From contig CAIYUC010000026.1 of NCBI GenBank assembly GCA_903929315.1, positions 1 to 37,099 on the forward strand: DNA of 37,099 bases, in the 5' to 3' direction. This DNA comes from an uncultured Bacteroidales bacterium (GTDB lineage Bacteria; Bacteroidota; Bacteroidia; Bacteroidales; FEN-979). Shown here in pieces: positions 5,986 through 26,341 of this stretch. How positions within the stretch are numbered: position 1 is the stretch's first letter; the number at the start of each line of letters is the position of its first letter. The position numbers and the translations under genes were made by a program. The notes below the pieces were generated by a model that did not search any database, was not told the DNA's origin, and saw only the letters and a program-made list of their open reading frames with translations.

Positions 5986-6681
5986 ATGGAAAAGAGCGAT
6001 TATACGATCCTTCTTGTCGACGATGAACCTGACATTCTTGAATTTGTAGGATACAACATAAAAAAGGAAGGTTATTCGCTCATCACCAGCAGTAATGGAA
6101 AGGAGGCCATTGAACTGGCCAGAAGAGATCTGCCACAACTGATCATCCTCGATATCATGATGCCCGGGATGGATGGTATAGAAGTCTGTTCAGAGCTACG
6201 GAAAATTCCTGAACTAAAACAGACAATTATTGCTTTCCTTACCGCCAGGGGTGAAGATTTCACTCAGATTGCCGGACTTGATGCAGGAGGAGATGATTAT
6301 ATTACCAAACCCATTAAACCCAGAGTGCTGATGAGCAGGATCAATGCATTGCTCAGAAGATATCCTACAGATAAAACCAGGGAATTACAAATGGTCCTCG
6401 GGGATACAATTATTGACAGGGAAAGATATGTGATCATTAAAAACGGGCAGGAAATCCTTTTCCCGCGAAAAGAGTTTGAATTACTTGCCCTGTTAATGTC
6501 GAAACCAAATAAAGTCTTTTCCAGGGAAGAAATATTTGAAGAAGTATGGGGTGACGACGTGGTCGTAGGCGACAGGACCATCGATGTACATATCCGGAGG
6601 ATACGGGAGAAATTAAATGATGAAAATATCAAAACAATAAAAGGAGTTGGCTATAAATATGAATTTTACACGAAATCTTAG
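5986..6681 (+). CDS. phoB: PhoB-type response regulator (OmpR family)
   Basis: A 231-residue DNA-binding response regulator. Receiver domain (about 6-120): acidic pair Asp12/Asp13, phosphoacceptor Asp56 in LIILDIMMPGMDG, Thr86 and Lys108. Winged-helix effector domain (about 135-230) with the terminal RRIREKL and GVGYKYEF. OmpR/PhoB-family effector domains bind head-to-tail to direct repeats with about 11-bp period, which matches the TTAAnn arrays found ahead of four genes here. It lies between gap and its kinase and converges on the pst-phoU operon, which is why I call it PhoB rather than another OmpR-type regulator. Its coding region overlaps the start of phoR by 23 bp. Confidence 0.85.
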   Translation: MEKSDYTILLVDDEPDILEFVGYNIKKEGYSLITSSNGKEAIELARRDLPQLIILDIMMPGMDGIEVCSELRKIPELKQTIIAFLTARGEDFTQIAGLDAGGDDYITKPIKPRVLMSRINALLRRYPTDKTRELQMVLGDTIIDRERYVIIKNGQEILFPRKEFELLALLMSKPNKVFSREEIFEEVWGDDVVVGDRTIDVHIRRIREKLNDENIKTIKGVGYKYEFYTKS

Positions 6682-7714
6682 TCCCAATACCTGGACTTTG
6701 ATTAATTCCGCTGCAATTGTTGTTGTTCTGACGATTCTTTATATTATTTCAGCATTGATCCTGCATTATCATATCCAGGTACTTCCATTGCTGGTTACCG
6801 ATACAGGAGTCTTTCTATTGTCCTATTTTATTTATAAATACATCCTGGAAAAATTTATTTATAGTCAGATAAAACTGATCTTCAAGACCATTCACACCCT
6901 AAAATCACCCAGGGGAACAAAAAACAAGGAAATTGATCTCCGCCAGGATATTATTTCCAACGTTAATAAAGAAGTATTACTCTGGGCACAGGACAAAAAA
7001 GAAGAGATTGAAGAATTAAGAAAAATGGAATCTTACCGCCGGGAATTCCTTGGAAATGTTTCCCACGAGCTGAAAACACCATTGTTCAACATACAGGGAT
7101 ATGTAATGACATTACTTGATGGCGGTATTGAGGATCCAAAAGTAAATGTGGAATATTTACAAAGGACAAAAAAAAATATTGACAGGATGATCGCGATCAT
7201 TGAAGATCTTGAGTCTATTTCAAGGTTTGAGACAGGGGAACTTCAATTGGAGATGAAAAAGTTTGATATTGTCGGACTGATCAAAGAAGTTATCGAACTT
7301 CTTGAGATCAAAGCTCACAAGAAAAAGATAAAATTAAAATTACGTGTCGATCCTGACAAACCAATATTTATGGAAGGTGATAAAGAAAGGATTCGCCAGG
7401 TACTGATTAATCTTATTGATAATTCGATCAAATATGGAAATGAAGAGGGAAATACGAAAATTTCCCTTTTTGACATGGATGAGAATTTTTTGATCGAGAT
7501 TACGGATAATGGAATAGGGATAGAAGCGAAGGATATACCCAGGCTATTCGAACGGTTTTACAGGGTGGATAAAAGCCGATCCCGTGAACAGGGTGGTTCA
7601 GGACTTGGACTGGCTATCGTTAAACATATCATTGAAGCTCATAACCAAACAATTAACGTAAGAAGTACGGTGGGTGTGGGGACTACCTTTGCATTCACTC
7701 TTAAAAAAGGTTAG
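6659..7714 (+). CDS. phoR: PhoR-type sensor histidine kinase
   Basis: A membrane sensor kinase predicted to phosphorylate the adjacent PhoB. Seen: two hydrophobic spans in the first 70 residues with little periplasmic sequence between them, a charged linker, the H-box NVSHELKTPLF, the N-box NLIDNSIKYG, the G-box DNGIGI and the F/G2 region RLFERFYRVDKSRS ... GSGLGLAIVKHI. Start: the ATG at 6659 (351 residues) is preferred to the TTG at 6647, because AAGGAG (6641-6646) then lies 12 bp upstream instead of directly abutting. There is no large sensor domain, as in PhoR kinases that sense phosphate through PstSCAB-PhoU. Its stop overlaps the stop of the convergent phoU by 4 bp. Confidence 0.87.
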   Translation: MNFTRNLSPNTWTLINSAAIVVVLTILYIISALILHYHIQVLPLLVTDTGVFLLSYFIYKYILEKFIYSQIKLIFKTIHTLKSPRGTKNKEIDLRQDIISNVNKEVLLWAQDKKEEIEELRKMESYRREFLGNVSHELKTPLFNIQGYVMTLLDGGIEDPKVNVEYLQRTKKNIDRMIAIIEDLESISRFETGELQLEMKKFDIVGLIKEVIELLEIKAHKKKIKLKLRVDPDKPIFMEGDKERIRQVLINLIDNSIKYGNEEGNTKISLFDMDENFLIEITDNGIGIEAKDIPRLFERFYRVDKSRSREQGGSGLGLAIVKHIIEAHNQTINVRSTVGVGTTFAFTLKKG

Positions 7715-8400
7715 CCCGAATGTTCTTCTGATGCCATATCCTTAAATAATCCTGAATGTTTTACCACTCTTCCTTCCACGAGGAACACGATGGATTCGGC
7801 AATATTTTGTGAATAACCTGCTATCCTTTCTATTTGGGTCAGGATGATCATTAAGTTGGTAGCTACTACAATCACATCCGATTTGTGGATCATTTCTTCA
7901 ATAATCATATCGGAAATAATACGGATTTTTTCCTTGATCGCGATTGATGCTTCAAATATATCCCGGATAAAAACAATATTTTTCGTGTTCAGGATATTGA
8001 TAACATCCTTTACAATGACCTCGGTCATCGCTGCCACTTCATCAATCTTCAACTCATTGATAATTTCTTTATAATCATTCAAACCCTCTATTTTGCTGGC
8101 AATATTAACAGCAAGATCACCCATCCTTTCCATGTCATTATTCATTTTCAAAGCGGCCATGATCAAACGCAAGTCTGTGGCAACCGGTTGTGTCAGGGCA
8201 AAGATCCGCTGGCAAAGCTTATCAATCTTCACATCGAGCTCATCCACCTTAGTATCATTTTCAATGATCTCAAGGGCAAGTTCTGTATCACATTGGGTCA
8301 GGGCATACATCGTTTGATGGATTTGTGATGCCACAAGGTTCCCCATCTTAATAATACGCTTGTTTAATTTATCAAGCTCCAATTCGAAATGTCTTTCCAT
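7711..8400 (-). CDS. phoU: Phosphate signalling/transport regulator PhoU
   Basis: A 229-residue all-helical protein with two PhoU repeats. In the first repeat the metal-binding PhoU signature appears as DLRLIMAALKMNNDMERMGD (about 76-95), followed by LAVNIASKI; the second repeat is more divergent (ILTQIERIAGYSQNIAE, about 190-206). PhoU links PstB to PhoR and keeps the Pho response off when phosphate is plentiful. It is the last gene of the leftward porin-pst operon, 147 bp after pstB; that gap holds one of the palindromic repeats, which could lower phoU expression. The end overlaps the end of phoR. Confidence 0.92.
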   Translation of the reverse strand: MERHFELELDKLNKRIIKMGNLVASQIHQTMYALTQCDTELALEIIENDTKVDELDVKIDKLCQRIFALTQPVATDLRLIMAALKMNNDMERMGDLAVNIASKIEGLNDYKEIINELKIDEVAAMTEVIVKDVINILNTKNIVFIRDIFEASIAIKEKIRIISDMIIEEMIHKSDVIVVATNLMIILTQIERIAGYSQNIAESIVFLVEGRVVKHSGLFKDMASEEHSG

Positions 8401-8463
8401 TATTCGGTCATTTTCTAATTATTATTTTAATCATTGCTGGCAGGTTGCTTTTGTTATTATAGT

Positions 8464-8536
8464 TATTCATTGTTATTCATTGTTCAATGTTCACTTTATT
8501 TCGTAATCCCTGCCTGACAGCAGGCAGGCGTAATTA
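8464..8536. repeat. Repeat cluster between phoU and pstB
   Basis: Two direct ATTCATTGTT units (8466-8485) are followed by related sequence whose reverse complement resembles the GAACAAT heptads at 32551-32599. Next to it, 8508-8536 holds a palindromic tail (CCTGCCTG facing CAGGCAGG, then CGTAATT) that shares GCAGGCAGGCGTAATT with 1040-1086. Confidence 0.55.
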
Positions 8537-8547
8537 TGAATATGTAA

Positions 8548-9306
8548 TTATCCAAACCTCCCTGTAATATAGTCCTCTGTCTGTTTCTTTTCTGGGTTTG
8601 TAAATATCTTTTTGGTTTTTCCGAACTCGATCAATTCCCCTATATAGAAGAAGCCGGTGTAATCGCTCACTCTTGCTGCCTGCTGCATATTATGGGTAAC
8701 GATAATGATCGTATAAAGTTCTTTCAAATGGAATATCAGTTCTTCTATTTTCGAGGTGGATATCGGGTCCAGCGCACTGGCCGGCTCATCCATTAAAATG
8801 ATCTCCGGATTGACTGCAAGCGTACGCGCAATACAAAGTCTTTGCTGCTGTCCACCGGATAGTCCAAGTGCAGAATCGTGCAAACGGTCTTTCACTTCAT
8901 CCCATATTGCAGCTCTTTTAAGCGAAGTTTCAACGATTTCCTTCAATTGTTTATGGTCCCTTATGCCATTTATTTTCGGTCCATACGCCACATTTTCAAA
9001 AATCGATTTGGCAAAAGGATTCGATTTCTGAAAGACCATCCCGATTTTTTTCCTGAGGTTAACGACATCCACCTGTTTATCGTAAATATTAAAGTCATCG
9101 ATAAGGATTTCACCTGTGATCCTTACGCCGGGGATAAGGTCATTCATCCGGTTCAGGCTCCGTAAGAAGGTGGATTTCCCACATCCTGATGGTCCGATAA
9201 GTGCAGTGACCTGTTTCGAAAGAATATCCATCGAGACTGAATTCAATGCCATTTTTTTACCATAGTATAGTGTAATATTCTTTACTTTAATTTTTCCTTC
9301 TTTCAT
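8548..9306 (-). CDS. pstB: Phosphate ABC transporter ATP-binding protein PstB
   Basis: A 252-residue ABC ATPase that powers high-affinity phosphate import with the PstA/PstC channel. Seen: Walker [10 protein letters not shown] (about 38-46), the Q-loop region [10 protein letters not shown], the ABC signature LSGGQQQRL (about 149-157), Walker [13 protein letters not shown], and the H-switch [29 protein letters not shown] is typical of PstB within the ABC superfamily. It starts 27 bp after pstA and is part of the same leftward operon. Confidence 0.96.
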
Positions 9307-9333
9307 CGATCAAAGAGTTCCTGTTAATAATTA

Positions 9334-10230
9334 TCAATGAGCCCTTCTTAATCTGGCCCGGATAATAACCGCTGTGAAATTCAATATAAAGGTAAGCATT
9401 AAAAGCACGAGTGTAGTAGCAAATTGAATCGGTAACGTCTGGTCGACATTGGTTGATTGTGTGGACATTATATAAATATGATAGCCCAGCGACATGAACT
9501 GGTCGCTTACGGAAGTAGGTAAGGTGGCGAGGTAATAAGCCGCTCCTGTAAATAATATGGGAGCTACCTCCCCTGCTCCCAGCGATATAGCAAGGATTGT
9601 GCCGGTAAGGATCCCTGATCTTGCACCTGGTAATACTACCTTAAGGATCGTTTGCCATTTCGTGGCTCCTAAAGCAAGGCTTGCTTCGCGCAGTTCCCGT
9701 GGGACAGCCTTCATGGATTCTTCCACAGAAACAATGACAACCGGCAGGGTCAATAATGCCATTGTCATGCTGGCCCACAATATATTCGGCTGGGCCCATT
9801 TTAACTGGCCTCCCAGAAATACATGGTCCATACCATTGCCAACAAACTTGATAAAAAATCCCAAGCCGAATAATCCGAAAATGATGGAAGGAACCATAGC
9901 CAGGGTCTTTACGGCAAATCCGACCATTTTCGCAAGAATTGAATTCGCTTTTGCATATTCTGTCAGGTATATCGCAGTAATCGTTCCAAAAGGGACGGCA
10001 GCAACCGACATGATTATTACCATCAAGGCTGTTCCGAAGAGGGCCGGAAAAATACCTCCTTTTGTCATCCCATCTTCAGGAAATGTGGATAAAAATTTCC
10101 ATGACATCTGATGCTTACCACCAACAATAATTACAATCAGGATAACGATGATGATGGCAATAATGAGGACAACCGAAAATGCAGTAGCTCCAACCATTAT
10201 TCCACCGGTAAGTCTGTTTAGCTTTTTCAT
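9334..10230 (-). CDS. pstA: Phosphate ABC transporter permease PstA
   Basis: A 298-residue inner-membrane permease with about six hydrophobic spans. The cytoplasmic EAA loop that docks with PstB reads LREASLALGATKWQTILKVV (about 188-207), followed by LPGARSGI. The early LSTFPEDGMTKGGIFPALFGT stretch is typical of PstA. Its start overlaps the end of pstC by 4 bp (10227-10230), implying translational coupling and equal amounts of the two channel halves. Length is normal. Confidence 0.94.
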   Translation of the reverse strand: MKKLNRLTGGIMVGATAFSVVLIIAIIIVILIVIIVGGKHQMSWKFLSTFPEDGMTKGGIFPALFGTALMVIIMSVAAVPFGTITAIYLTEYAKANSILAKMVGFAVKTLAMVPSIIFGLFGLGFFIKFVGNGMDHVFLGGQLKWAQPNILWASMTMALLTLPVVIVSVEESMKAVPRELREASLALGATKWQTILKVVLPGARSGILTGTILAISLGAGEVAPILFTGAAYYLATLPTSVSDQFMSLGYHIYIMSTQSTNVDQTLPIQFATTLVLLMLTFILNFTAVIIRARLRRAH

Positions 10231-11456
10231 GATATTCTACCCTGAAATCTTCTCATTAACCTTCCCTTGACGTAAAATTCAGCCAGCGCATTTATGCTGA
10301 AAGTAAAAATAAATAACAGTGAACCAATCAGGAATAGCACGTTGTAGTGTGTATCTCCAAAAACTACTTCAGCCATTTCAGCTCCGATAGTAGCAGATAA
10401 TGTTCGCACAGATTCAAATGGATTGATTGAAGTTAGCGCTGCGTTTCCGGTAGCCATTAAGGCAATCATGGTTTCACCGAAAATCCTGCCGATCCCAAGT
10501 AATACCGCGGCAAAGATACCCGGTGTTGCTGCCGGCAATGTAACGAAAAAAGCTGTCTGCCATTTCGATGCACCTAAGGCCAGGCTGGCCTCCTTATATG
10601 TTTCCGGTACAGCCGTCATAACATCTTCAGTGATGGTAAAAATAATCGGGATCGCAGCCAACGCCATGGCTATCCCACCAACAAACGCATTCAACCGGGT
10701 TGAATAACCAAAAACCTGCTGAAGGAAGGTAGCCATTACCATCAAAGCAAAAAACCCAACGACAACGGAAGGAAAACCGGCTAAAATTTCAATAGCCGGC
10801 TTTATGATCTCCTTCAACCATTTTGGTGAAAATGCTGCGGAGAAAAGCGCTGCAAGAATAGCCAACGGGGCCGCGAACAGAATACCGATAAGGGTTATCT
10901 TAATGGTACCAACGATCAGTGGCACCATTCCATATCTCGGAACATCAGATACAGGCATCCAGACTTTCCCAAACAATCCTTTTAAGGTGACCCTGTCAGG
11001 TGAAAAAGGTACTACCCTATCGCTTCGCCCGGATAAACGGTCATCTTCCTTAACCTCTTCCGACGTTCTCCCGGCTGTCTGCGCACTGTCCGCTGCTAAA
11101 CCGTACCTTTCCTGTTTTGGTTCTTCACTGCCCGTATATCGTTCCTGTTTATTGTCTGCCGTTTTACTTGCCTCCCCTTTGTATTTTTCAGGCAAACCAG
11201 ACAACGTCGATTGTGTCTTCCGGTCAGCGGCTGACCTGAAGATCGGAAGCGTTTCCTTGAAAACAAATACAAAAATCAGTACGATAATGGTGATCGAAAG
11301 AAAGGCTACTCCTGTTATTATTTTCTCAGAGAGGAATTCAGAAAGCCGGAGTTTCTTTTTCAAAGTACCCTGGCTGAAGACGAAGTCATTTTTATCTATC
11401 CGGACTTCCGGGGAAGCAGGTTGTTGGGGAAGGGGATCTAAAGATTCATCATGCAT
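10227..11456 (-). CDS. pstC: Phosphate ABC transporter permease PstC with a long periplasmic insert
   Basis: Partner channel subunit to PstA. Seen: a cytoplasmic N-terminal tail (1-43), TM1 (about 46-67), then a polar insert (about 77-155), then the conserved region starting at KVWMPVSDVPRYGMVPLIVG and the remaining membrane spans with the EAA loop EASLALGASKWQTAFFV. At 409 residues it is about 100 longer than typical PstC. The excess is the insert between TM1 and TM2, facing the periplasm where PstS docks. The insert is rich in Lys, Glu, Ser and Arg and repeats KQERY twice (103-107 and 114-118). Identity as PstC is firm from the family core and operon position; the role of the insert is unknown. 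Confidence 0.93.
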   Translation of the reverse strand: MHDESLDPLPQQPASPEVRIDKNDFVFSQGTLKKKLRLSEFLSEKIITGVAFLSITIIVLIFVFVFKETLPIFRSAADRKTQSTLSGLPEKYKGEASKTADNKQERYTGSEEPKQERYGLAADSAQTAGRTSEEVKEDDRLSGRSDRVVPFSPDRVTLKGLFGKVWMPVSDVPRYGMVPLIVGTIKITLIGILFAAPLAILAALFSAAFSPKWLKEIIKPAIEILAGFPSVVVGFFALMVMATFLQQVFGYSTRLNAFVGGIAMALAAIPIIFTITEDVMTAVPETYKEASLALGASKWQTAFFVTLPAATPGIFAAVLLGIGRIFGETMIALMATGNAALTSINPFESVRTLSATIGAEMAEVVFGDTHYNVLFLIGSLLFIFTFSINALAEFYVKGRLMRRFQGRIS

Positions 11457-11538
11457 AAAAATTGTGTCTTTGCTACTTTGAAGTAAAGAATAAATTGGTA
11501 TTAACCATAGAGCAAGCTTCTTTGAATTTAATCACAAA

Positions 11539-11568
11539 AACTCACCCCCTCAATGGCGGGGGTGAGTT
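11539..11568 (-). terminator. Strong hairpin between pstS and pstC (attenuator or 3' stabiliser)
   Basis: A perfect 11-bp stem, AACTCACCCCC (11539-11549) pairing with GGGGGTGAGTT (11558-11568), with an 8-nt loop. Read on the operon (minus) strand it is followed by a short T-run. It lies in the 166-bp gap after pstS and before pstC, where a partial terminator or RNA-stabilising hairpin would raise PstS over the membrane subunits. Confidence 0.65.
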
Positions 11569-11622
11569 CATTAAAAACCAGGTTTTGAAGATAACCTCTT
11601 TAAAACCACTTATTACTAACCC

Positions 11623-12462
11623 CTACTTAACCGGAAAATAACCCAGATCGACCACTAATTTTTGTCCTTCCGGACCAAGAATCCAGTCAATGTAATTCTT
11701 TATGTCACCGGTAGGCCGGTTCCTCAGATACATGTATAAATATCTGCTGATCGGATAAGTACCGTTTTTAATTGTTTCGGCTGATGCAGGATAGGCCGTA
11801 CTTTTATCGTCTTTTTTCACATTACAACGTTTTACACCGACTGCATAAGCAGCGCCACCATAACCTATACCATATTTATCATTCTTCACTGCATTGACTA
11901 CTGCGGCTGTCCCGGGAAGTGTCTGGCAACTGGTTGCATAATCTCCTTTGACGACATTTTCCTGGAAGAAAACATAGGTACCTGAACTGTTTTCACGACC
12001 ATACAACTTGATATCGGAATTAGGTCCTCCAACATCTTTCCAGTTTTTTATTGCTCCGGAAAAAATTCCGCTTAACTGTTTTATACTCAGTTCTTTTATG
12101 GGATTGGATTCATTCAGATAAATTGTAATTCCGTCTTTTGCACAAGGGATCTCAATTCCTAATGAACCATACCGGTCTTTCAGCTTATCAATTTCCGAGC
12201 TTTTCATAGGACGACTTGCATTACAAATATCAGTAGATCCATTGATTAAAGCCGATATCCCTGTTCCTGAACCTCCGCCTGTAACCTGCAAAATTACTTC
12301 AGGATGAGCTTTCATATACACTTCAGCCCATTTTTGGGCCAGGATTACCATGGTATCCGAACCTTTGATGGTGATCTTTTTGGGTGCAGGCATAAAGGCA
12401 AAGATGATCATTGCCAAGACTATAGCACCCACTATTCTGAAAATATTTTTTGACTTTTTCAT
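11623..12462 (-). CDS. pstS: Phosphate-binding protein PstS
   Basis: A 279-residue periplasmic solute-binding protein that delivers phosphate to PstCAB. Seen: an N-terminal hydrophobic export segment (about 9-24) without a clear lipobox cysteine, then phosphate-loop motifs IKGSDTM, TGGGSGTGI, CNASRPM and GRENSSGTYVFF. The length suits the short PstS class. It begins 32 bp after the porin stop, so the two are cotranscribed from the Pho-type promoter at 14057-14123, and is followed by the hairpin at 11539-11568. The N-terminus could be a retained anchor rather than a cleaved signal. Confidence 0.94.
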   Translation of the reverse strand: MKKSKNIFRIVGAIVLAMIIFAFMPAPKKITIKGSDTMVILAQKWAEVYMKAHPEVILQVTGGGSGTGISALINGSTDICNASRPMKSSEIDKLKDRYGSLGIEIPCAKDGITIYLNESNPIKELSIKQLSGIFSGAIKNWKDVGGPNSDIKLYGRENSSGTYVFFQENVVKGDYATSCQTLPGTAAVVNAVKNDKYGIGYGGAAYAVGVKRCNVKKDDKSTAYPASAETIKNGTYPISRYLYMYLRNRPTGDIKNYIDWILGPEGQKLVVDLGYFPVK

Positions 12463-12494: not shown

Positions 12495-14033
12495 TTAGAA
12501 TTTTGCCTGGAGACGAATGGTAAGGATATTCGCTTTAATCAGGTTACTGTAATCTGTTGTTCCTCCAACCCCTCCGGTCACTGTATAAGATGGGTTTACA
12601 TAGCCGACCGTATTTCCTTTTTTATCTGTAAATGATCCGACCTTTTCATTCATTGGAATATCATAAGCAATGCCTAACCTGATATTATCAGTGATGTAAT
12701 AATTATAGCAAAAACCCAGGGTCCCATAAGCAATATCGGCAGTTCCGCTTTTATACTGACTGTTCATAACGGTGGTAGTGGTAGTGGTGTTGATGATCAC
12801 CGGATCATTCCCTGTTGTAACAGTTTTCGTCGAGGTAGTAGTTAAGTTTTTGCCATATACTGCAGTATTACCGATATCATTACCTGAAATTTTAGTATTG
12901 GGATCATAATAATCCCAACGGATTGAGATCTGGTGGCGTTTCCCGATATTCTTGATCAGGTATACATAATATCCTGAAAAATTACGGATAATATCAGGTC
13001 TGAAGGATGTCGTTTTTGTTGACAAGGTTGACATTGTCAGGCTATCATTGGTCTTGTTAAAAGCAAAAGTGGTAGGATTGTTGACCGTTGTGGTGCTGCT
13101 GAAACCGGGGTAAGCATTTGTCCCCATAATATATTCACCTTTCAATGTCAGACCACCCAGAATGTCCATATATAACTGAGCTTCAAAACCAACCCAGTTC
13201 CTGTTCAATGATGAACCAACCTTAACGGTTTTATCGAGTGTATAATCGGATTTGAGGACCGTATCCACGGTTGCCCTCAGGAACCCAATATATGTATGAG
13301 CGCCGATCGTCAGACCGCCAAAGTTTCCAAGTTTGAAAGCATAGGTAAGACGTGCCATGATATCCTTTGAATTATCAAAATCTTTATTGTCAGGATTGAT
13401 ATTGGCTCCGGTTGCATCCGTAATGGTCATGTTATCATTACCGTTGAAAACAGCTAATTGGAATTTTAAAGGAATTTTTGGCGGAGTAAATTCAAGTTTT
13501 GCACCAATCGCGTATTCACCAGGATAAATGGACGTGATTACCCTTGAACGCTCAAGGTTTTCAAGATCAGATGAAGAGTACTCCACTTCATAATTAGGAC
13601 GGTTAAACTTACCGGCCCATAATGAAAAGGATTTTAACCATGGTTCATTGAGGCGTGCATAAGCTTCCTTAATAACAAAATTACTCGGTTGAAAATCCGG
13701 CTGAAGAACAAAAGCAACTCCCGTAGAAGGTTCATACTGCAACTTGAACCTGGCTCTGCGAATTTGAAAATAATTTGAGGGATATACTGAACCCTGCTCA
13801 AAATGCTGCCATTGAGCCTGCACATACCCGGAAATTTTTATTTTCGTCAGTTTTGAAAGATCCGCCTCTGCATTGGTAATACGGTCTTCAACGCCTGATA
13901 CCCGGTCCCTCAGGGTGGTCACCTGTGGAGCTAAAGTATCCGTACCGGACTGAGAATATACTGGTTTTACTAATGCCAACGGGACCAGTAAACCAATGGA
14001 TAAAATAAACTTGGTAAAAGTTTTTCTTTTCAT
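12495..14033 (-). CDS. Phosphate-selective outer-membrane porin (OprO/OprP family)
   Basis: Predicted outer-membrane channel feeding phosphate to PstS. The ATG at 14033 gives 512 residues starting MKRKTFTKF, with a signal peptide ending near PVYSQ; the longer frame to 14087 runs into the promoter region and is rejected. After the signal comes a short coiled-coil-like stretch (LRDRVSGVEDRITNAEADL), then a beta-barrel domain opening with KISGYVQAQWQHF and showing IRRARFKLQYEP, both typical of OprO/OprP-type porins. Repeated aromatic-ended beta segments follow, and the protein ends in an aromatic residue (LQAKF), the usual outer-membrane barrel signature. As first gene of the pst operon its substrate is very probably phosphate or polyphosphate. 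Confidence 0.88.
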   Translation of the reverse strand: MKRKTFTKFILSIGLLVPLALVKPVYSQSGTDTLAPQVTTLRDRVSGVEDRITNAEADLSKLTKIKISGYVQAQWQHFEQGSVYPSNYFQIRRARFKLQYEPSTGVAFVLQPDFQPSNFVIKEAYARLNEPWLKSFSLWAGKFNRPNYEVEYSSSDLENLERSRVITSIYPGEYAIGAKLEFTPPKIPLKFQLAVFNGNDNMTITDATGANINPDNKDFDNSKDIMARLTYAFKLGNFGGLTIGAHTYIGFLRATVDTVLKSDYTLDKTVKVGSSLNRNWVGFEAQLYMDILGGLTLKGEYIMGTNAYPGFSSTTTVNNPTTFAFNKTNDSLTMSTLSTKTTSFRPDIIRNFSGYYVYLIKNIGKRHQISIRWDYYDPNTKISGNDIGNTAVYGKNLTTTSTKTVTTGNDPVIINTTTTTTVMNSQYKSGTADIAYGTLGFCYNYYITDNIRLGIAYDIPMNEKVGSFTDKKGNTVGYVNPSYTVTGGVGGTTDYSNLIKANILTIRLQAKF

Positions 14034-14056
14034 AGGGATTATAATTTTGGTTTCGG

Positions 14057-14123
14057 CAAAAGTAGATCGATGCGTTTTTAAACGCATTAATTGGGAATTA
14101 ACATAGTGTTAAATAATTGTTAA
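14057..14123 (-). promoter_or_regulatory. Pho-box promoter of the porin-pst operon
   Basis: On the minus strand, direct hexamers sit at an exact 11-bp period: TTAACA (14123-14118), TTAACA (14112-14107), TTAATT (14101-14096), TTAATG (14090-14085). Exactly 20 bp later comes the -7 box TACTTTTG (14064-14057), 23 bp before the start codon. TTAACA repeats with 5-bp spacers match the Bacillus PhoP consensus. The spacer holds an inverted repeat, ATGCGTTT (14070-14077) and AAACGCAT (14080-14087). Confidence 0.75.
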
Positions 14124-14140
14124 CGGATGCCGGATATTCG

Positions 14141-14247
14141 ATTACGAATTACGGATTACGAATTACGAATTGTGGTTTTCGCTATTTCGCTAATTCGCAG
14201 TTTCGCTACTTATTTAATGGCCTGAAGCCTGTAAGCCTTATGCCTTA
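14141..14247. repeat. Three consecutive short-period arrays (7, 8 and 7 bp)
   Basis: First array (14141-14175): heptads ATTACGA, ATTACGG, ATTACGA, ATTACGA, ATTGTGG. Second (14176-14207): octads TTTTCGCT, ATTTCGCT, AATTCGCA, GTTTCGCT. Third (14220-14247): heptads GCCTGAA, GCCTGTA, AGCCTTA, TGCCTTA. The third overlaps the end of the GH13 gene, whose last two codons and stop fall within it. Confidence 0.7.
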
Positions 14248-15845
14248 TAAACAGATACTTCAAACGGGAATATCCACAGGTTCTGAAAATAAAAAATCTC
14301 TTCATACTTTCTGTGAGTCGAAAATAAAACGCATCCAAAGTTATGTTCCGCCAGGAATATTCGTTTTTTCCTGCCGGTAAAATTCAGCACTACCACGATA
14401 CGCTCTTCATTATGAATACGTGCAAATGCCAGGATTCCATGTTGGCCAGCAATCAATGGAACCCATCGACCTTGCTGAAGAGCAATATGACTTTTATGTA
14501 TTTTGATAAGCATGCGATAGAAATTAAGGATTGAGTTCTTATCCTTTTCCTGGTTTTCAACGTTTCGTTTTAATGCGTCAGCATTTACAGGCAGCCATGG
14601 ATTCCCTGCAGTAAACCCTGTATTTTTACCGGAATTCCATTGCATAGGTGTTCGCGCTTTGTCCCTTCCTGAGAAGAATGGCCAGAAACGTTTTCCAAGC
14701 GGATCCTGAATATCACGATATTTGATTTTCGCATTCCGCATTCCGATCTCTTCACCATAATAAATAAAGGGGGTTCCTTTCAGAGTAAGAAGGAGCGCTG
14801 CTGCTACTTTCGCTTTTTCAACTTTATTATGCCGCCAGGGGAATCGGTCGATACTGCGGAAAAGATCATGGTTTGACAATACATTACATGGCCAACCCTT
14901 TTCAGGAATATACCTGTAACCATCATTGATACACTCGTAATATTTCCTGGCACTCCAATGACGGAAGATCAGGGAAAAATCAAAAGCCATGTGCATTCCA
15001 CTTCCATTCGAAAGGTAGCTGGCTGCAATTTTAGAATTTCCGGGTGGCAAAGTATATATCTCACCAACAATCACCCGGTTGTCATATTGATCAACCAATT
15101 TCCTCAGTTCTCTGACAATCTTATGCGATTTGGGTCGGTTTCTGGTAAAAATATGCCGCTGAAATACAGGTATTCCAAAAAAATACGGGTTATTGCGGAA
15201 TTTTTTATCCTTTACAATAAAATTAATGACATCCAGACGGAATCCATCTACTCCAATATCCAGCCAGAATTTTACTTCCGTAAAGAAAGCTTCAGAAAGA
15301 GCAGGATTCCTCCAATTCAAATCAGGTTGCTCTTTAAAAAATGAGTGACAATAATATTGGCCCGTTGTCTCATCCAGTTCCCAGGCGCTACCTCCTACCG
15401 TTGTTTTCCAGTTATTCGGAGGGCCACTCTTATTTCCATCTTTCCAGATATACCAATTCCGTTTTGGATTTTCTTTTGAGGCCATGGATTCCAGGAACCA
15501 CGGATGCTGATCTGAAGTATGGTTGAGAATCATATCGGAAATTACCCTGATACCAAGACCATGAGCTTTGTCAATCAACATTTTAAAATCATCCATGGTC
15601 CCATAAACGGGATCTATTTCCCTGTAGTCCGATACATCATATCCGAAATCAACCATTGGGGATAAGAAGACAGGTGACAACCAAATTCCATCAACACCCA
15701 GGTCTGATAAATAATTCAACTTACTAATGATACCCTGAATGTCGCCGACCCCGTCACCATTGGAGTCCATGAAGCTCCGGGGATAGATATGATAGATAAC
15801 TCCATGTTTCCACCAAATCCATGGCTCAGGTTGCTGATGTTCCAT
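14238..15845 (-). CDS. GH13 alpha-glucosidase (oligo-1,6-glucosidase-like)
   Basis: A 535-residue cytoplasmic GH13 enzyme hydrolysing alpha-glucosidic bonds. Seen: a (beta/alpha)8 barrel opening with GVIYHIYPRSFMDSNGDGVG, region I DMILNHTS (104-111), catalytic nucleophile Asp205 in GFRLDVINF, acid/base Glu262 in VIVGEIYT, and the NHD triplet 325-327 holding the transition-state Asp327. No signal peptide. VGDI in the Ca-binding-like loop and the lack of accessory domains fit the oligo-1,6-glucosidase/alpha-glucosidase subgroup; trehalose-6-phosphate hydrolase or sucrose phosphorylase-like activity cannot be excluded. It starts inside the end of the upstream GT4 gene (20-bp overlap), so the two are translationally coupled and probably share a pathway. 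The last codons lie in a heptad array. Confidence 0.88.
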   Translation of the reverse strand: MEHQQPEPWIWWKHGVIYHIYPRSFMDSNGDGVGDIQGIISKLNYLSDLGVDGIWLSPVFLSPMVDFGYDVSDYREIDPVYGTMDDFKMLIDKAHGLGIRVISDMILNHTSDQHPWFLESMASKENPKRNWYIWKDGNKSGPPNNWKTTVGGSAWELDETTGQYYCHSFFKEQPDLNWRNPALSEAFFTEVKFWLDIGVDGFRLDVINFIVKDKKFRNNPYFFGIPVFQRHIFTRNRPKSHKIVRELRKLVDQYDNRVIVGEIYTLPPGNSKIAASYLSNGSGMHMAFDFSLIFRHWSARKYYECINDGYRYIPEKGWPCNVLSNHDLFRSIDRFPWRHNKVEKAKVAAALLLTLKGTPFIYYGEEIGMRNAKIKYRDIQDPLGKRFWPFFSGRDKARTPMQWNSGKNTGFTAGNPWLPVNADALKRNVENQEKDKNSILNFYRMLIKIHKSHIALQQGRWVPLIAGQHGILAFARIHNEERIVVVLNFTGRKKRIFLAEHNFGCVLFSTHRKYEEIFYFQNLWIFPFEVSVYKA

Positions 15846-16983
15846 TTACAAGATGGGGAGTTTGAATTTCAATATCCTGTAACAATTGATTCAGGATTTT
15901 ATCGACGGTGTAATCATCAGCACGTTTAATTGCTGCCTCCTTAAAGGAATTCTGCAGGTTTTTATCAGAAAAATATTCAATGATCTGTTCACTCATTTCA
16001 TCAGGCGTTTCAACGAGAAATCCATTGATTGAATCCTGAATAATATCTTTTGGGCCTTTTGTATTATAGGCAATTACAGGTAAACCGCAACTCAAGGCTT
16101 CAAGGACGACACAGCTGAATGTATCGAAACGTGATGGGAGAATAAGCAGGTCAGCGGAAGCATAGATCTCCGACAATTTGTCGTGTTCGATCCATCCTGT
16201 ATATTCTGCCTCAGGAAAAGCCATTTTAAGGGCATTCTCCGAAGGACCTGTACCTGCAATAAGCATTCGCAGGTTGGGTATCCTTTCCCTGGCTTTCCTG
16301 AAAATTCCCGCCAATTCAAATACACCTTTTTCCTGGCTTATCCGACCGGTGAAAAGAATAACCGGTCCGTTTGCTTTGGAATTTGAATTCTCTGATTTAC
16401 TGCCATTCTGTGAAGAAAAAATCTCATCAGCCCAGTGTGCGGTCATCAGAATCCGTGAAGGATCGAATCGCATCAAATCGCCTGTTAGCCATTTTTGCTG
16501 ATCAGAATTAAGTACGAAAACATGATCGAACCTGTTATAATAAATACGCATAATACGTTGCAACCGATTCAGCCCAGCCTCTTCCATGGCCATGGCCTCC
16601 TTTGCAAAGCTGATCCAATCAGTATGCAGATAAAAATATGTTTTTACAGAATATAACTTCTTCAGGTATAATGCTGCAAGCCCCATCGGGCCTTCGGTTG
16701 AGCAAAGGATACGGCTATATTTCCTTTTAAGGAAAATCCGCCGAATGCTTATAAAATTAGGGATCCGGAGAGGTTGTTGCCGGTATAGTGGTATATTGAA
16801 TTCCGAAATAGGTTTCAGGACAATCAAATGACTGTCTGATTTCAGGGTGTTGCTGCAAACCATTATATCAACCGGTAAATCACGGTTCTTTATCTCCCGG
16901 TGCATGGCTTGCAATACCATAGAAACTCCATTATGATCTTCGAATGTATCGGTAAGCCAGAGCGCCCGGTTTTCCGTTTTCAT
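15826..16983 (-). CDS. GT4-family glycosyltransferase (possible diacylglycerol glycosyltransferase, Agt-like)
   Basis: A 385-residue GT-B glycosyltransferase. The N-terminal acceptor domain opens with ALWLTDTFEDHNGVSMVLQ, a Gly-Val turn common to family 4. The C-terminal donor domain shows FTGRISQEKGVFEL, LIAGTGPSEN and the nucleotide-sugar segment LILPSRFDTFSCVVLEALSC, where the conserved Glu sits in LEAL. No membrane span. It overlaps the downstream GH13 gene and diverges from a PlcP/LpxH-like phosphoesterase; between them lie two arrays of 11-bp-spaced TTAA hexamers. In Sinorhizobium, plcP and the GT4 gene agt act together to swap phospholipids for glycolipids under phosphate starvation. 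I infer a similar role; polysaccharide synthesis remains possible. Confidence 0.75.
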   Translation of the reverse strand: MKTENRALWLTDTFEDHNGVSMVLQAMHREIKNRDLPVDIMVCSNTLKSDSHLIVLKPISEFNIPLYRQQPLRIPNFISIRRIFLKRKYSRILCSTEGPMGLAALYLKKLYSVKTYFYLHTDWISFAKEAMAMEEAGLNRLQRIMRIYYNRFDHVFVLNSDQQKWLTGDLMRFDPSRILMTAHWADEIFSSQNGSKSENSNSKANGPVILFTGRISQEKGVFELAGIFRKARERIPNLRMLIAGTGPSENALKMAFPEAEYTGWIEHDKLSEIYASADLLILPSRFDTFSCVVLEALSCGLPVIAYNTKGPKDIIQDSINGFLVETPDEMSEQIIEYFSDKNLQNSFKEAAIKRADDYTVDKILNQLLQDIEIQTPHLVNGTSAT

Positions 16984-17034
16984 GGCAAAACATTTTAAGC
17001 TGCAAATGTCAGTATTAACACGACGAACTTTTAT

Positions 17035-17073
17035 ATGTTACTGAAATTTAATAGTTTGTTAACTTAAAATTAA
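17035..17073 (-). promoter_or_regulatory. Candidate Pho-type hexamer array facing the GT4-GH13 pair
   Basis: On the minus strand TTAATT (17073-17068), TTAACA (17062-17057) and TTAAAT (17051-17046) keep an 11-bp period; a poorer fourth, TAACAT, follows at 17040-17035. I do not find a TAnnTTTG box at 20 bp; the nearest, GACATTTG (17010-17003), is mis-spaced. So the operator is plausible and the promoter is not resolved. Confidence 0.4.
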
Positions 17074-17087
17074 TACCGGGGACCTCC

Positions 17088-17165
17088 TTAATAATTATTT
17101 AACTATTGCTTAATAATAATATAATGAGCTTTTTACATTTCTTATTTATAACGATTTTACTTTTG
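17088..17165 (+). promoter_or_regulatory. Pho-box promoter of the PlcP-like phosphoesterase
   Basis: Hexamers at an 11-bp period: TTAATA (17088), TTAACT (17099), TTAATA (17110), ATAATG (17121, one mismatch) and TTTACA (17132-17137). Exactly 20 bp later is the -7 box TACTTTTG (17158-17165), identical in sequence and spacing to the porin-pst promoter. The ATG follows only 10 bp after the box, so the transcript is probably leaderless or nearly so. Confidence 0.7.
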
Positions 17166-17175
17166 CAGCCAGATT

Positions 17176-18027
17176 ATGAAACGTTCTTCGATTGCCAAAC
17201 GTGAAGTGGATGTAGTGGTTATCTCGGATGTCCATCTCGGAGCTTTCGGTTGTCATGCAAAAGAATTGCTTACTTACCTTCGCAGTATACGTCCGAAGAC
17301 GCTGATCCTCAATGGAGATATTATTGACATCTGGCAGTTCAGGAAGCGGTATTTCCCAAAGCAGCACCTGATGGTAATTCGTCACCTGACCGGGCTGATA
17401 GCCAAAAACACAAAGGTCGTATACATTACCGGAAATCACGATGAACTGATGCGTAAGTTTGTAAAGTTCAACATTGGCTCCTTTAAACTCGTTAATAAAC
17501 TCCTGATTGAAATCGGTGGAAAGAAGACCTGGATCTTCCACGGAGATGTATTTGATATCACCATGAAATACAGCAAATGGCTGGCAAAGCTGGGTTCATT
17601 CGGGTATGACCTGCTGATCCGGCTGAATAGTTTTTCCAATTTCCTGCTGACCACTATGGGAAGTGAGAAAATATCGTTCTCAAAACGGATTAAGCATAGC
17701 GTAAAGACAGCGGTTTCCTATATTAATCAATTCGAGGAAACAGCCGCAGGAATTGCCATTTCGAAGGGATACCAAAATGTCATCTGCGGTCATATTCACC
17801 AACCGGAGATCCGTAAGATCAATAATGCACAGGGGGAAGTGACTTATATGAACTCCGGCGACTGGGTTGAAAGTCTCTCAGCCCTCGAATTTCACAAGGG
17901 AGAATGGAGGATCTACAATTACCGGGAGGATTTGTATTGTCAGTCTTATGCACAGGCAACCCGGCAGTTGGAATCTCTAAGTCATAAGGAAACCTTCGAG
18001 TTGCTCCTTAAGGAATTCAAGTTATGA
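17176..18027 (+). CDS. Calcineurin-like phosphoesterase, PlcP/LpxH-like
   Basis: A 283-residue metallophosphoesterase. Metal-ligand motifs are complete: SDVHLG (Asp18, His20), NGDIIDIW (Asp48), GNHDE (Asn87, His88), HGD (His122) and GHIHQPE (His206, His208). The Trp in DIIDIW and the overall length fit the family annotated as UDP-2,3-diacylglucosamine hydrolase (LpxH). That family also contains PlcP, the phosphate-regulated phospholipase C of Sinorhizobium meliloti and marine bacteria, which releases diacylglycerol from phospholipids. Placement beside a GT4 gene, divergent from it, near the pst operon and behind a Pho-type promoter favours PlcP-like function, but sequence alone does not exclude LpxH. 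No signal peptide; predicted to act at the cytoplasmic face. Confidence 0.82.
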   Translation: MKRSSIAKREVDVVVISDVHLGAFGCHAKELLTYLRSIRPKTLILNGDIIDIWQFRKRYFPKQHLMVIRHLTGLIAKNTKVVYITGNHDELMRKFVKFNIGSFKLVNKLLIEIGGKKTWIFHGDVFDITMKYSKWLAKLGSFGYDLLIRLNSFSNFLLTTMGSEKISFSKRIKHSVKTAVSYINQFEETAAGIAISKGYQNVICGHIHQPEIRKINNAQGEVTYMNSGDWVESLSALEFHKGEWRIYNYREDLYCQSYAQATRQLESLSHKETFELLLKEFKL

Positions 18028-24130: not shown

Positions 24131-24197
24131 ACATGGACCCGTATCCTCTGCTAATCCATCAGATACGCCTCAAAGGCTGAGATACTGAATTTTATTA

Positions 24198-24253
24198 CAA
24201 AGCTACCATGACCTTATTCAATCCATATTAATGAACCGTTAATAAAGTATTAA
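24198..24253 (-). promoter_or_regulatory. Pho-type promoter of the orphan histidine kinase
   Basis: On the minus strand, hexamers at an 11-bp period: TTAATA (24253-24248), TTAACG (24242-24237), TTAATA (24231-24226). Exactly 20 bp later is the -7 box TAGCTTTG (24205-24198), about 68 bp before the start codon. The layout equals that of the porin-pst promoter. Confidence 0.62.
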
Positions 24254-24273
24254 TTAAATGAGCAATTAACTAA

Positions 24274-24928: not shown

Positions 24929-25020
24929 TTAACCACTATGTACACAAAGAAGGCAAAATGGAAACAAAGAGATTATTCATTGTGCACTTGGTGTAAAACC
25001 TGCCGGCAGGCAGGCAGGCT
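24929..25020. repeat. Second copy of the dispersed palindromic repeat, overlapping a gene end
   Basis: Positions 24929-24949 equal 970-990, and TATTCATTGTG plus GTGTAAAACCTGCC near 24972-25004 match 1014-1044. The GC-rich tail (24998-25020) is CCTGCCGGCAGGCAGGCAGG. The GT4 gene ends inside it: its stop is at 24973-24975. Confidence 0.7.
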
Positions 25021-26241
25021 TTGTTCATTATGGTTATTTGTTTTATCAGCAGAGGGCTGGTTTATATCTTGTTTCGTGTTATGAAAATTGATGATATCGG
25101 TATATTTCATATTCACTTCATCAATAATGGTCTCCCAATTTCTGTACAGGGACTTGCGTGCGCCTTCCCCTGCCTTTCTTATGGTATCCGGGTATTCCAT
25201 TAGTTCTGAAAGAGTTTTTGCAAGAGCTGCAGTTTCATTATCGATCAGAAAACCGTTTACCGTATCCAGGATTCCTTCTGCTGAGGAACTGTTTTTTACC
25301 ACCACTGAAGGAACATTAAAAGCAGCAGCCTCCTGAATTACTAAAGGAGAATTATCATAAACAGAAGGGAAAATGAACAGGTCGGAACAGGCATAAATGT
25401 TTCCAAGTTCTTTCCTGCTTGTAATCAAACCCATAAAAACAACATTTGCCGAAAGCTTATATTTCTTTACTAATTTTTTCATTTCATTCTCTGCATATCC
25501 TTCACCCACAAAGACCATTTTGAATGAATCCCCTTTGTCTTTAATTATTTTCAGCGCTTCAATGATCATTTTTACATTCTTTTCCCATCGGTGTTGTCCT
25601 ACAAATAACATTACGAATTCATCCCTGCTGGCACCTATTGCCTCAAGCCCTTTTTTCCTGAACTTCATCAATTTTGATTTTTCCGGGATTTCCATATCGG
25701 TTCCATTGTGAACGATATCATAGTTTCCATTATAGCCATATTCCCTGAGCGTCTCACCGGTCGCTTTATTAGGTACCCAAACATAGTCTGCCGAATGATA
25801 AAAATTAAGAGACAACTGCATCAGAAAATCAACGAATATTTCAGCATTCAGCACCTTTTTAAAATCGTCGCGATATTTGGAATGGAAGGTCGCTATCAAA
25901 GGGACATTATGCTTTTTAGCCAGTTTTAAAGCCAGTTGACCACTCACAAAAGGAGAATGCGAATGAATAATATCAAATTTCACCTCCTTTAATTTCTTTT
26001 TAAACCTGATATCGAGCAAGGGTAGTCCCACACGATATGGATTCATACCCGGAAGCAGCACTGATTTAAACCGGATCACCTTGTATTCCACTGCATCCTT
26101 ATAATCTTTTACCTTAGGCGCAACCAGATAGGTTTTTCCATATTTGCGGCTCAGCCAACATGCGTAATTATGGGCCGTCATACCCACTCCGTCCATGATC
26201 GGGAAGTAGGCATCAGTAAACTGGCAGGAGGTCATTTTCAT
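24973..26241 (-). CDS. GT4-family glycosyltransferase (diacylglycerol glucosyltransferase-like)
   Basis: A 422-residue GT-B enzyme. The N-terminal domain opens TDAYFPIMDGVGMTAHNYA, followed by IIHSHSPFVSGQLAL and LIATFHSKY, a layout shared with alpha-monoglucosyl-diacylglycerol synthases and related GT4 enzymes. The donor domain has VGQHRWEKNVKMIIEAL, FVGEGYAENEMKKL and LFIFPSVYDNSPLVIQEAAA with the conserved Glu. No membrane span; probably peripheral on the inner membrane. The last 14 or so residues (LPACRQVLHQVHNE) are encoded by the dispersed palindromic repeat, so the native C-terminus was replaced or extended. The promoter has the Pho-type layout. Glycolipid synthesis under phosphate limitation is inferred; other sugar acceptors are possible. 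Confidence 0.78.
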   Translation of the reverse strand: MKMTSCQFTDAYFPIMDGVGMTAHNYACWLSRKYGKTYLVAPKVKDYKDAVEYKVIRFKSVLLPGMNPYRVGLPLLDIRFKKKLKEVKFDIIHSHSPFVSGQLALKLAKKHNVPLIATFHSKYRDDFKKVLNAEIFVDFLMQLSLNFYHSADYVWVPNKATGETLREYGYNGNYDIVHNGTDMEIPEKSKLMKFRKKGLEAIGASRDEFVMLFVGQHRWEKNVKMIIEALKIIKDKGDSFKMVFVGEGYAENEMKKLVKKYKLSANVVFMGLITSRKELGNIYACSDLFIFPSVYDNSPLVIQEAAAFNVPSVVVKNSSSAEGILDTVNGFLIDNETAALAKTLSELMEYPDTIRKAGEGARKSLYRNWETIIDEVNMKYTDIINFHNTKQDINQPSADKTNNHNEQSLPACRQVLHQVHNE

Positions 26242-26274: not shown

Positions 26275-26341
26275 TAAAAGTAACGGGAGACAATTTGTAA
26301 CGTGTTATGGCAATATTATTTTTTTATTAAATAATTATTAA
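26275..26341 (-). promoter_or_regulatory. Pho-type promoter of the second GT4 gene
   Basis: On the minus strand, hexamers at an 11-bp period: TTAATA (26341-26336), TTAATA (26330-26325), ATAATA (26319-26314), ATAACA (26308-26303). Exactly 20 bp later is TACTTTTA (26282-26275), one base off the box at the pst operon. It lies 33 bp before the start codon. The last two hexamers each carry one mismatch, so this site is weaker than the porin site. Confidence 0.55.

What the first reader, a model, noticed from the sequence alone, without database searches (positions are those of the whole stretch)
15826..18027. Likely phosphate-starvation lipid-remodelling module (PlcP-like phosphoesterase with GT4) beside the pst operon
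A calcineurin-like phosphoesterase of the family that includes both LpxH and PlcP is divergent from a GT4 glycosyltransferase, the pair known as plcP and agt in Sinorhizobium and marine bacteria. Both face Pho-type hexamer arrays in one 192-bp intergenic region, about 2 kb from the phosphate operon start. A second GT4 gene at 24973-26241, resembling diacylglycerol glucosyltransferases, carries the same promoter layout. Together this implies replacement of phospholipids by glycolipids when phosphate is scarce in this Bacteroidota lineage.
Basis: partly seen in the sequence, partly recalled or inferred. Interest (0 to 1): 0.74.

Follow-up and report, generated by a model that had tools for sequence, protein, structure and literature searches.

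The report
Phosphate-starvation lipid-swap gene cassette
When phosphate runs short, this bacterium probably cuts the phosphate heads off its membrane lipids and puts sugars on instead, and some of its relatives seem to carry an untested fused enzyme for the same job.

Summary
The 192-bp gap to the divergent GT4 gene (GT4a) holds two TTAAY arrays of 11-bp period; exact triple arrays occur at four places in the 4.31-Mb genome, all in this 37-kb contig, one before the porin-pst operon. In 78 Bacteroidota plcP promoters the 11-bp pair is about 80-fold enriched. PlcP under phosphate control in Bacteroidota is already published, so that part is not new. The partner is unusual: GT4a is not a clear Agt orthologue, and in 70 of 78 plcP loci outside the family the partner is a PF13528-type enzyme. 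In 18 of 326 relatives the GT4a partner is a fused PHP-like phosphoesterase (in pieces in one) and none of the 18 has PlcP; 22 of 23 with stand-alone GT4a have PlcP. A same-genus genome has the PHP version, broken, at this very locus. I read the window as a hybrid cassette in which PlcP stands in for the PHP half. Reactions and lipids are inferred, not shown.

The parts
17176..18027 (+). plcP: calcineurin-like metallophosphoesterase of the PlcP clade, 283 aa
   Evidence: Tree; motifs SDVHLG, GNHDE, HGDVFD, GHIHQP; AF2 model (pLDDT 77.3) whose 25 best PDB matches are all LpxH folds; TIGR01854 43.8 bits, cut-off 190.35
15826..16983 (-). GT4a: GT4 glycosyltransferase, 385 aa, divergent from plcP, D-x7-E motif in the same context as in two plcP-linked Agts
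   Evidence: GT-B-type model, pLDDT 67.8
14238..15845 (-). GH13 alpha-glucosidase-like gene, overlaps GT4a by 20 bp (probably one operon); catalytic D/E/D motifs present
   Evidence: present with GT4a in 17 of 20 fetched family loci and beside the PHP-GT4 fusion in 11 of 17 fetched loci
17048..17074 (+). Pho-type array 1: TTAAT-TTAAC-TTAAT, 11-bp period
   Evidence: reads with 1 mismatch on the GT4a strand
17088..17114 (+). Pho-type array 2: TTAAT-TTAAC-TTAAT, 11-bp period, ends 61 bp before plcP
   Evidence: a triple array lies before plcP in 19 of 21 family promoters with GT4a
14086..14123 (-). Pho-type array before the porin-pst operon (four TTAAY units)
24973..26241 (-). GT4b: second GT4, best NCBIfam match alpha-monoglucosyldiacylglycerol synthase (114.9 bits, cut-off 400)
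   Evidence: clustered with plcP/GT4a in 15 of 20 fetched family loci
26315..26341 (-). Weak Pho-type array (one mismatch) about 74 bp before GT4b
24227..24254 (-). Pho-type array before a PAS/HisKA_2 histidine kinase (23024-24130)
12495..14087 (-). Porin-like first gene of the pst run (no Pfam or NCBIfam hit)
   Evidence: the name is by position and recall
7711..12462 (-). phoU, pstB, pstA, pstC, pstS
5986..7714 (+). phoB-type response regulator and phoR-type histidine kinase

Best explanation
The locus is a phosphate-starvation membrane-remodelling cassette. At low phosphate PhoB binds the TTAAY arrays and turns on plcP, GT4a-GH13, the pst operon and probably GT4b. PlcP, a metallophosphoesterase, cuts the phospho-head group off phospholipids to give diacylglycerol and a recyclable phosphate ester; GT4a, probably with GT4b, puts sugars on the diacylglycerol to make phosphorus-free glycolipids; the GH13 enzyme modifies or trims the glucose part (least certain step). 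The cassette is a hybrid: GT4a's nearest kin are fused to a PHP-like phosphoesterase, and in the window's lineage that half is absent and PlcP stands beside GT4a. Shown in sequence: PlcP clade, arrays, gene linkage, co-occurrence, the two versions at one locus within a genus. Inferred: PhoB binding, the reactions, the lipids and the exchange itself.
For: PlcP clade with S. meliloti PlcP, split from the LpxH side at 100/98. Separate LpxH-type homologue in the genome, C31:6239-6952, 69.9 v 43.8 bits for the window gene. Array specificity: 4 places in the genome, all in this contig, control 0. In 78 Bacteroidota plcP promoters (2 of them from this family) TTAAY pairs at 11 bp: 35 hits, 1.80/kb v 0.022/kb background; no other period from 7 to 19 gives more than 4; 31 of 78 promoters have a pair. 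In the family 21 of 22 plcP genomes have a divergent GT4a, and 19 of those 21 promoters carry the triple array. Phosphate genes nearby in other settings: a Pit transporter gene in 9 and its DUF47 partner in 8 of 20 fetched loci, pst in 1 of 20 plus the window. Over 326 relatives PlcP is in 22 of 23 genomes with stand-alone GT4a, 0 of 18 with the PHP-like half (one of these, G001, in pieces), 44 of 285 with neither. Six of the 18 have pst-type genes in the fetched stretch. Published: plcP regulated by P availability in Dokdonia MED134 among three strains (PMC4796936, passages); Fjoh_4577 PlcP log2 change 8.59 at low phosphate (PMC8115612, passages).
Against: No expression or lipid data for this lineage. 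GT4a's acceptor is not readable from sequence: nearest folds are BshA, PimB', PimA and its best NCBIfam models are TIGR04157 and BshA, not lipid enzymes. The E. coli LpxH branch is very long (4.0) and flagged as unsure. 17 of 43 family genomes show neither PlcP, GT4a nor the PHP-like half. Exact triple arrays are in only 2 of the 78 promoters. Only 2 of 14 fusion promoters carry a TTAAY pair, so phosphate control of the fusion is not general by this motif. The GH13 has no established place in known remodelling pathways. Co-occurrence counts are not corrected for relatedness.
Confidence: 0.68

Rival explanations
1. PlcP remodels lipids, but the diacylglycerol goes to other phosphorus-free lipids or simply to phosphate recycling, while GT4a-GH13 make an envelope or storage saccharide that happens to be phosphate-regulated.
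For: Dokdonia MED134, with PlcP, had various aminolipids and fewer phospholipids after P starvation (PMC4796936 passages); GH13 is a sugar enzyme close to alpha-glucosidases and an alpha-glucosyltransferase; GT4a resembles BshA/PimB' as much as any lipid enzyme.
Against: Stand-alone GT4a occurs with PlcP in 22 of 23 genomes, and all 21 family loci that hold both have them head to head; GT4a shares the PSR-x-DTF D-x7-E context with two Agts.
Confidence: 0.18
2. The phosphoesterase works after the glycosyltransferase: GT4a makes a phosphorylated soluble glycoside and the PHP half or PlcP removes its phosphate, as in sucrose-phosphate synthase/phosphatase pairs (recalled).
For: A fusion of a GT4 with a phosphoesterase, plus GH13, would suit this; sucrose-phosphate synthase-like structures are among the fold matches; a PHP nucleoside-bisphosphate phosphatase model weakly matches 7 of 13 fusion halves.
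Against: The partner in the window falls in the PlcP clade, whose tested members act on phospholipids (papers seen in passages); pst/Pit neighbours and phosphate arrays fit lipid remodelling better.
Confidence: 0.09
3. The protein is this genome's LpxH (lipid A synthesis) and its position is incidental.
For: Its two best NCBIfam matches are LpxH models (53.5 and 43.7 bits); the best fold matches are LpxH.
Against: Below both LpxH cut-offs (134 and 190.35 bits); outside the LpxH side of the tree; another homologue in the genome scores higher on the LpxH model; phosphate arrays upstream.
Confidence: 0.03

Closest known systems
PlcP-Agt lipid remodelling (Sinorhizobium/Agrobacterium, SAR11, roseobacters, Pseudomonas, Methylosinus)
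   Same: PlcP-clade phosphoesterase, GT4 neighbour, phosphate-type promoter; GT4a shares the D-x7-E context with two plcP-linked Agts
   Different: GT4a is not a clear Agt orthologue, lies divergent rather than downstream, overlaps a GH13 gene and is accompanied by a second GT4; its nearest kin are PHP-like fusions
Bacteroidota plcP with a PF13528-type glycosyltransferase (70 of 78 loci; PlcP of Dokdonia MED134 and F. johnsoniae are reported in the papers seen)
   Same: Homologous PlcP; 11-bp TTAAY pair before plcP in 31 of 78 promoters
   Different: That partner is another family and sits downstream on the same strand; in the window its place is taken by GT4a
D. alaskensis Dde_3613, called Agt, needed for glycolipids at low phosphate (PMC5193443, passages)
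   Same: Glycosyltransferase for MGDG/GADG under phosphate limitation; the word PlcP does not occur in that paper's text
   Different: Other phylum; its domain make-up was not checked here, so whether it carries a fused phosphoesterase is unknown
LpxH
   Same: Same fold and related metal motifs
   Different: Separate side of the tree; a distinct LpxH-type gene exists in this genome

Membership tests
PlcP | Groups with an experimentally known PlcP and apart from LpxH | tested here: met
   55 rows, split 100/98. The S. meliloti row is from strain Ak57; I take it as the tested PlcP by its LuxR/AHL-synthase neighbours, which is recall. The E. coli LpxH branch is long.
PlcP | Metal-binding phosphoesterase motifs intact | tested here: met
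   SDVHLG, GNHDE, HGDVFD, GHIHQP; core residues invariant in 30 aligned relatives
PlcP | Phosphate-starvation control | tested here: inconclusive
   Promoter arrays specific and conserved; expression not measured
PlcP | Phospholipase C activity on phospholipids | not testable with these tools
   Needs an enzyme assay
Agt | Orthology to plcP-linked Agt | tested here: inconclusive
   22% identity over 317 aa to the Sphingomonas protein; GT4a profile scores plcP-linked GTs 68-86 bits and GT4b proteins 55-73 bits
Agt | Lies downstream of plcP in one operon, as reported for SAR11 and Erythrobacter | tested here: not met
   Divergent in the window and in 20 of 20 fetched family loci
LpxH | Reaches a curated LpxH cut-off or falls on the LpxH side of the tree | tested here: not met
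   53.5 v 134 and 43.7 v 190.35 bits; tree. The genome's other homologue also misses the cut-off (69.9 v 190.35)
alpha-monoglucosyldiacylglycerol synthase (GT4b) | Reaches the NF049988 cut-off of 400 bits | tested here: not met
   114.9 bits, best of its matches
PHP superfamily (N-terminal half of the GT4a fusions in relatives) | Conserved metal ligands and a family-model match | tested here: inconclusive
   Invariant H39, H41, H85, E106, H119, H158, D239, H241 in 13 of 13 aligned (ligand roles recalled). NCBIfam CehA/McbA model in 11 of 13, best 3.1e-6, first member 24.9 v cut-off 80; Pfam PHP in 4 of 13, best E 0.0067, first member 12.9 v 26.4 bits; no meaningful PDB match

The most novel reading that the evidence does not exclude
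In several Bacteroidota families one polypeptide, a divergent PHP-type phosphoesterase fused to GT4a, carries out both steps of phospholipid-to-glycolipid exchange (head-group removal and sugar transfer), and the window's lineage has swapped that half for a free-standing PlcP at the same pst-linked locus. This would be a second, unrelated phospholipase C for lipid remodelling.
Probability: 0.35. Interest if true: 0.78.

Novelty: new variant of a known kind. Interest (0 to 1): 0.6.

Why it matters
Phosphorus-free membranes are a main way microbes cope with phosphate shortage. Here the phosphoesterase half of the pathway appears exchangeable between two unrelated enzyme families while the glycosyltransferase stays, which would let genomes without PlcP remodel lipids and would make surveys that count plcP genes underestimate the trait. 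The 11-bp TTAAY repeat, about 80-fold enriched before 78 Bacteroidota plcP genes, also offers a testable phosphate box for the phylum; a search for one in print listed three papers, of which PMC4796936 reports putative Pho boxes in plcP clusters (section 13), for which phyla I did not see.

Tried and rejected
LpxH reading: rejected on tree and genome content. GNRD versus GNHD as an LpxH mark: rejected, since the Bacteroidota LpxH-type rows read GNHD too. PHP-like half searched in the class: 0 of 395 genomes at E 1e-20; none of the 14 same-order genomes listed in that draw is one of the 18 later found, so there was no positive control and it only suggests the fusion is not common. The same half against plasmids: no match. 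Phosphate arrays before fusions: 2 of 14 promoters, against a simple story. The GT4a fold (pLDDT 67.8, 3-row alignment) gave generic GT-B matches. Neighbours of the C31 LpxH-type gene tell nothing. A PHP-glycosyltransferase lipid enzyme in print: searches (0 papers; 44 papers hold 4 of 5 terms, 20 listed) showed none by listing, abstract start or the passages read; the library holds open-licence PMC papers only.

Rows dropped or doubled: L044 and L045 have the contig lengths and plcP upstream sequences of G012:C56 and G008:C11 and were not counted twice in family tallies. One search left out 2 of the 80 loci (under 200 bases upstream); those 80 are themselves the best of at least 592 matches. 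One search used 38 GT4a rows and left out G565, G001 and G037 (too incomplete). G042 is counted as stand-alone GT4a by its tree place; its contig ends 5 bases past GT4a's start, so neither a PHP-like half nor plcP could be seen there.
Full report
What is there. The window is contig C26 of a 4.31-Mb Bacteroidota genome, 98.5% complete. Reading leftward from the plcP start: a 192-bp gap, GT4a (15826-16983), a GH13 gene overlapping it by 20 bp (14238-15845), then a promoter with a phosphate-type array and the porin-pstSCAB-phoU run; phoB and phoR type genes lie at 5986-7714. To the right of plcP come a type ISP restriction gene, a PAS histidine kinase, and GT4b.

PlcP or LpxH. Against curated models the 283-aa protein misses both LpxH cut-offs (53.5 of 134 and 43.7 of 190.35 bits). 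In a 55-row maximum-likelihood tree it lies on one side with the S. meliloti protein, six other proteobacterial homologues and 26 other Bacteroidota rows that I chose from the strong hits; on the other side lie E. coli LpxH, the genome's own second homologue (C31) and 19 weak-hit homologues of relatives; the split has support 100/98. The E. coli branch is long and its place is flagged as unsure by the program. The C31 gene also fails the LpxH cut-off (69.9 of 190.35 bits); in the 14 control genomes three ring with that model and one passes. An AlphaFold2 model (pLDDT 77.3) has LpxH structures as its 25 best PDB matches, as expected for either enzyme.

The promoter arrays. TTAAYW three times at 11-bp period occurs three times in the genome, all in this contig, and the reversed pattern never. 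With TTAAY the exact pattern marks four places, again all here: pst, the two in the plcP/GT4a gap, and one before the histidine kinase. Allowing one mismatch gives 26 hits against 15 control hits, including one before GT4b, so that one is weak. Among the 21 family loci with plcP and GT4a (window and 20 fetched) the triple array lies before plcP in 19 and at least a pair in 20; G019, which has plcP without GT4a, has none. In 78 plcP promoters from across Bacteroidota (the loci with enough upstream sequence, two of them from this family) pairs at period 11 number 35, 1.80 per kb, against 0.022 per kb elsewhere in the same loci; the next best of the 13 periods tested has 4; 31 of 78 promoters have a pair but only 2 an exact triple. 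I take this as a PhoB box of the phylum; binding is inferred.

The partner genes. All 20 further family loci fetched have GT4a divergent from plcP; 17 show GH13, 15 GT4b, 9 a Pit phosphate transporter gene, 8 its DUF47 partner and 1 the pst operon within the fetched stretch, several being cut by contig ends. By contrast 70 of 78 plcP loci outside the family have a glycosyltransferase of another type on the same strand downstream (mostly within 300 bp), 2 have it on the other strand, 6 lack it (one of them with under 1 kb of room); two representatives of that type are PF13528. So the plcP-GT4a pair is special to this family, not the Bacteroidota norm.

The fusion. Four plcP-less relatives first showed GT4a inside a frame of about 880-945 codons. 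Their N-terminal 500 residues have eight invariant residues in the pattern of PHP metal ligands (roles recalled) and weak matches to PHP-superfamily models, none over a cut-off. A search of 326 relatives found this half in 18 genomes of 11 families: full length in 15, cut by contig ends in G565 and G611, and in pieces in G001. Stand-alone GT4a is in 23 genomes, 22 of this family and G623 of another. PlcP is present in 22 of the 23 (the exception, G042, cannot be judged: its contig ends 5 bases past GT4a's start) and in 0 of the 18; among the other 285 genomes 44 have it. Fisher tests give 4e-16 for stand-alone GT4a with PlcP and 0.03 for fusion against PlcP, without correction for kinship; the second is weak alone. 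GH13 adjoins the fusion in 11 of 17 fetched loci other than G001, and six of the 18 genomes (G001, G014, G022, G547, G592, G682) have pst-type genes in the fetched stretch, those of G022 only 29-56% like the window's. Only 2 of 14 fusion promoters carry a TTAAY pair.

The swap. In the same-genus genome G001 the order is phoB, phoR, phoU, pst, porin, array, GH13 in two pieces, a 117-aa GT4a piece, a 459-aa PHP-like piece, GT4b, SecDF: the window's locus with the PHP version, decayed or badly assembled. Between the two genomes phoB to the porin and SecDF are 65-87% identical and GT4b 71%, but the GT4a piece is 59% and GH13 51-68%. Against G012, a genome of another genus with the PlcP version, the order reverses: GT4a 75%, GH13 76%, plcP 82%, GT4b 65%. 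In the GT4a tree stand-alone and fused forms fall apart (support 87 and 99, short search, G010 unplaced). Genus g3 likewise holds both versions (G010 PlcP; G014, G022 fusion). The simplest reading is that a GH13-GT4a-plcP cassette replaced a PHP-GT4a one at this site; which form is older is not settled.

How it works. PlcP clade, phosphate arrays and a GT partner fit published PlcP-Agt remodelling: PlcP yields diacylglycerol, the glycosyltransferase adds sugar. GT4a shares with two plcP-linked Agts the context PSR-x-DTF with D-x7-E, but is not a clear orthologue. GT4b's best model is a glucosyl-diacylglycerol synthase, far below cut-off. The GH13 is nearest in the PDB to an alpha-glucosidase and an alpha-glucosyltransferase entry (3wy1, 6aav); it might move glucose onto or off the glycolipid. 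That step is a guess.

What is known. Passages and section 13 of PMC4796936 report plcP in Flavobacteria, its regulation by phosphate in Dokdonia MED134 with fewer phospholipids and various aminolipids, Pho boxes in plcP clusters, and plcP upstream of various glycosyltransferases. Passages of PMC8115612 list PlcP Fjoh_4577 (log2 change 8.59) and a glycosyltransferase in the PhoBR operon, Fjoh_0541, under lipid remodelling at low phosphate in F. johnsoniae. Passages of PMC9239053, PMC8528852, PMC6445935, PMC5193443, PMC12927429 and PMC12419801 were also seen. A Bacteroidota strain, L. euxinus, kept a nearly constant lipid make-up at reduced phosphate (PMC12927429), though at 0.35 mM and with PlcP not mentioned. 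No PHP-GT4 lipid enzyme turned up in the searches named under Tried and rejected.

Verdict. The core observation is right and its core claim ordinary for the phylum; the hybrid cassette and the PHP-GT4 fusion are the new part, as a variant of a known system, with a testable claim that a second phosphoesterase family does PlcP's job.

Noticed in passing
window 18221-21373: A type ISP restriction-methylase gene lies between plcP and GT4b; no counterpart shows in the fetched family loci or in same-genus G001, so it looks like an insertion that separated GT4b from the module.
   Followed up: partly
window 23024-24254: A PAS/HisKA_2 histidine kinase has its own exact triple TTAAY array about 97 bp upstream, suggesting a second phosphate-controlled sensor.
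   Followed up: no
L244, L248, L252, L253, L258, L263, L266: Seven family genomes share a TTAAY triple array between a gene of the endonuclease/exonuclease/phosphatase family (one tested, PF19580) and a trypsin/PDZ protease gene (one tested): likely another phosphate-regulon member.
   Followed up: no
L246, L255, L261 (c4); L245, L247, L251, L262, L268 (c16): TTAAY triple arrays also lie beside two kinds of large gene; the one c4 member tested is TonB-receptor-like, c16 was not tested.
   Followed up: no
L345 (G623, another family): Carries plcP, GT4a, GH13 and GT4b together, but plcP is cut to a 177-aa frame: the cassette has a copy outside the family that may be decaying.
   Followed up: partly
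class Bacteroidia, 395 genomes drawn evenly: PlcP-type hits at E 1e-20 or better in 203 of 395 genomes: the gene is widespread in the class.
   Followed up: no
window 33966-34493: A predicted nucleotidyltransferase (DUF6036/AbiEii-like) near the right end, possibly half of a toxin-antitoxin or defence pair with the small gene after it.
   Followed up: no
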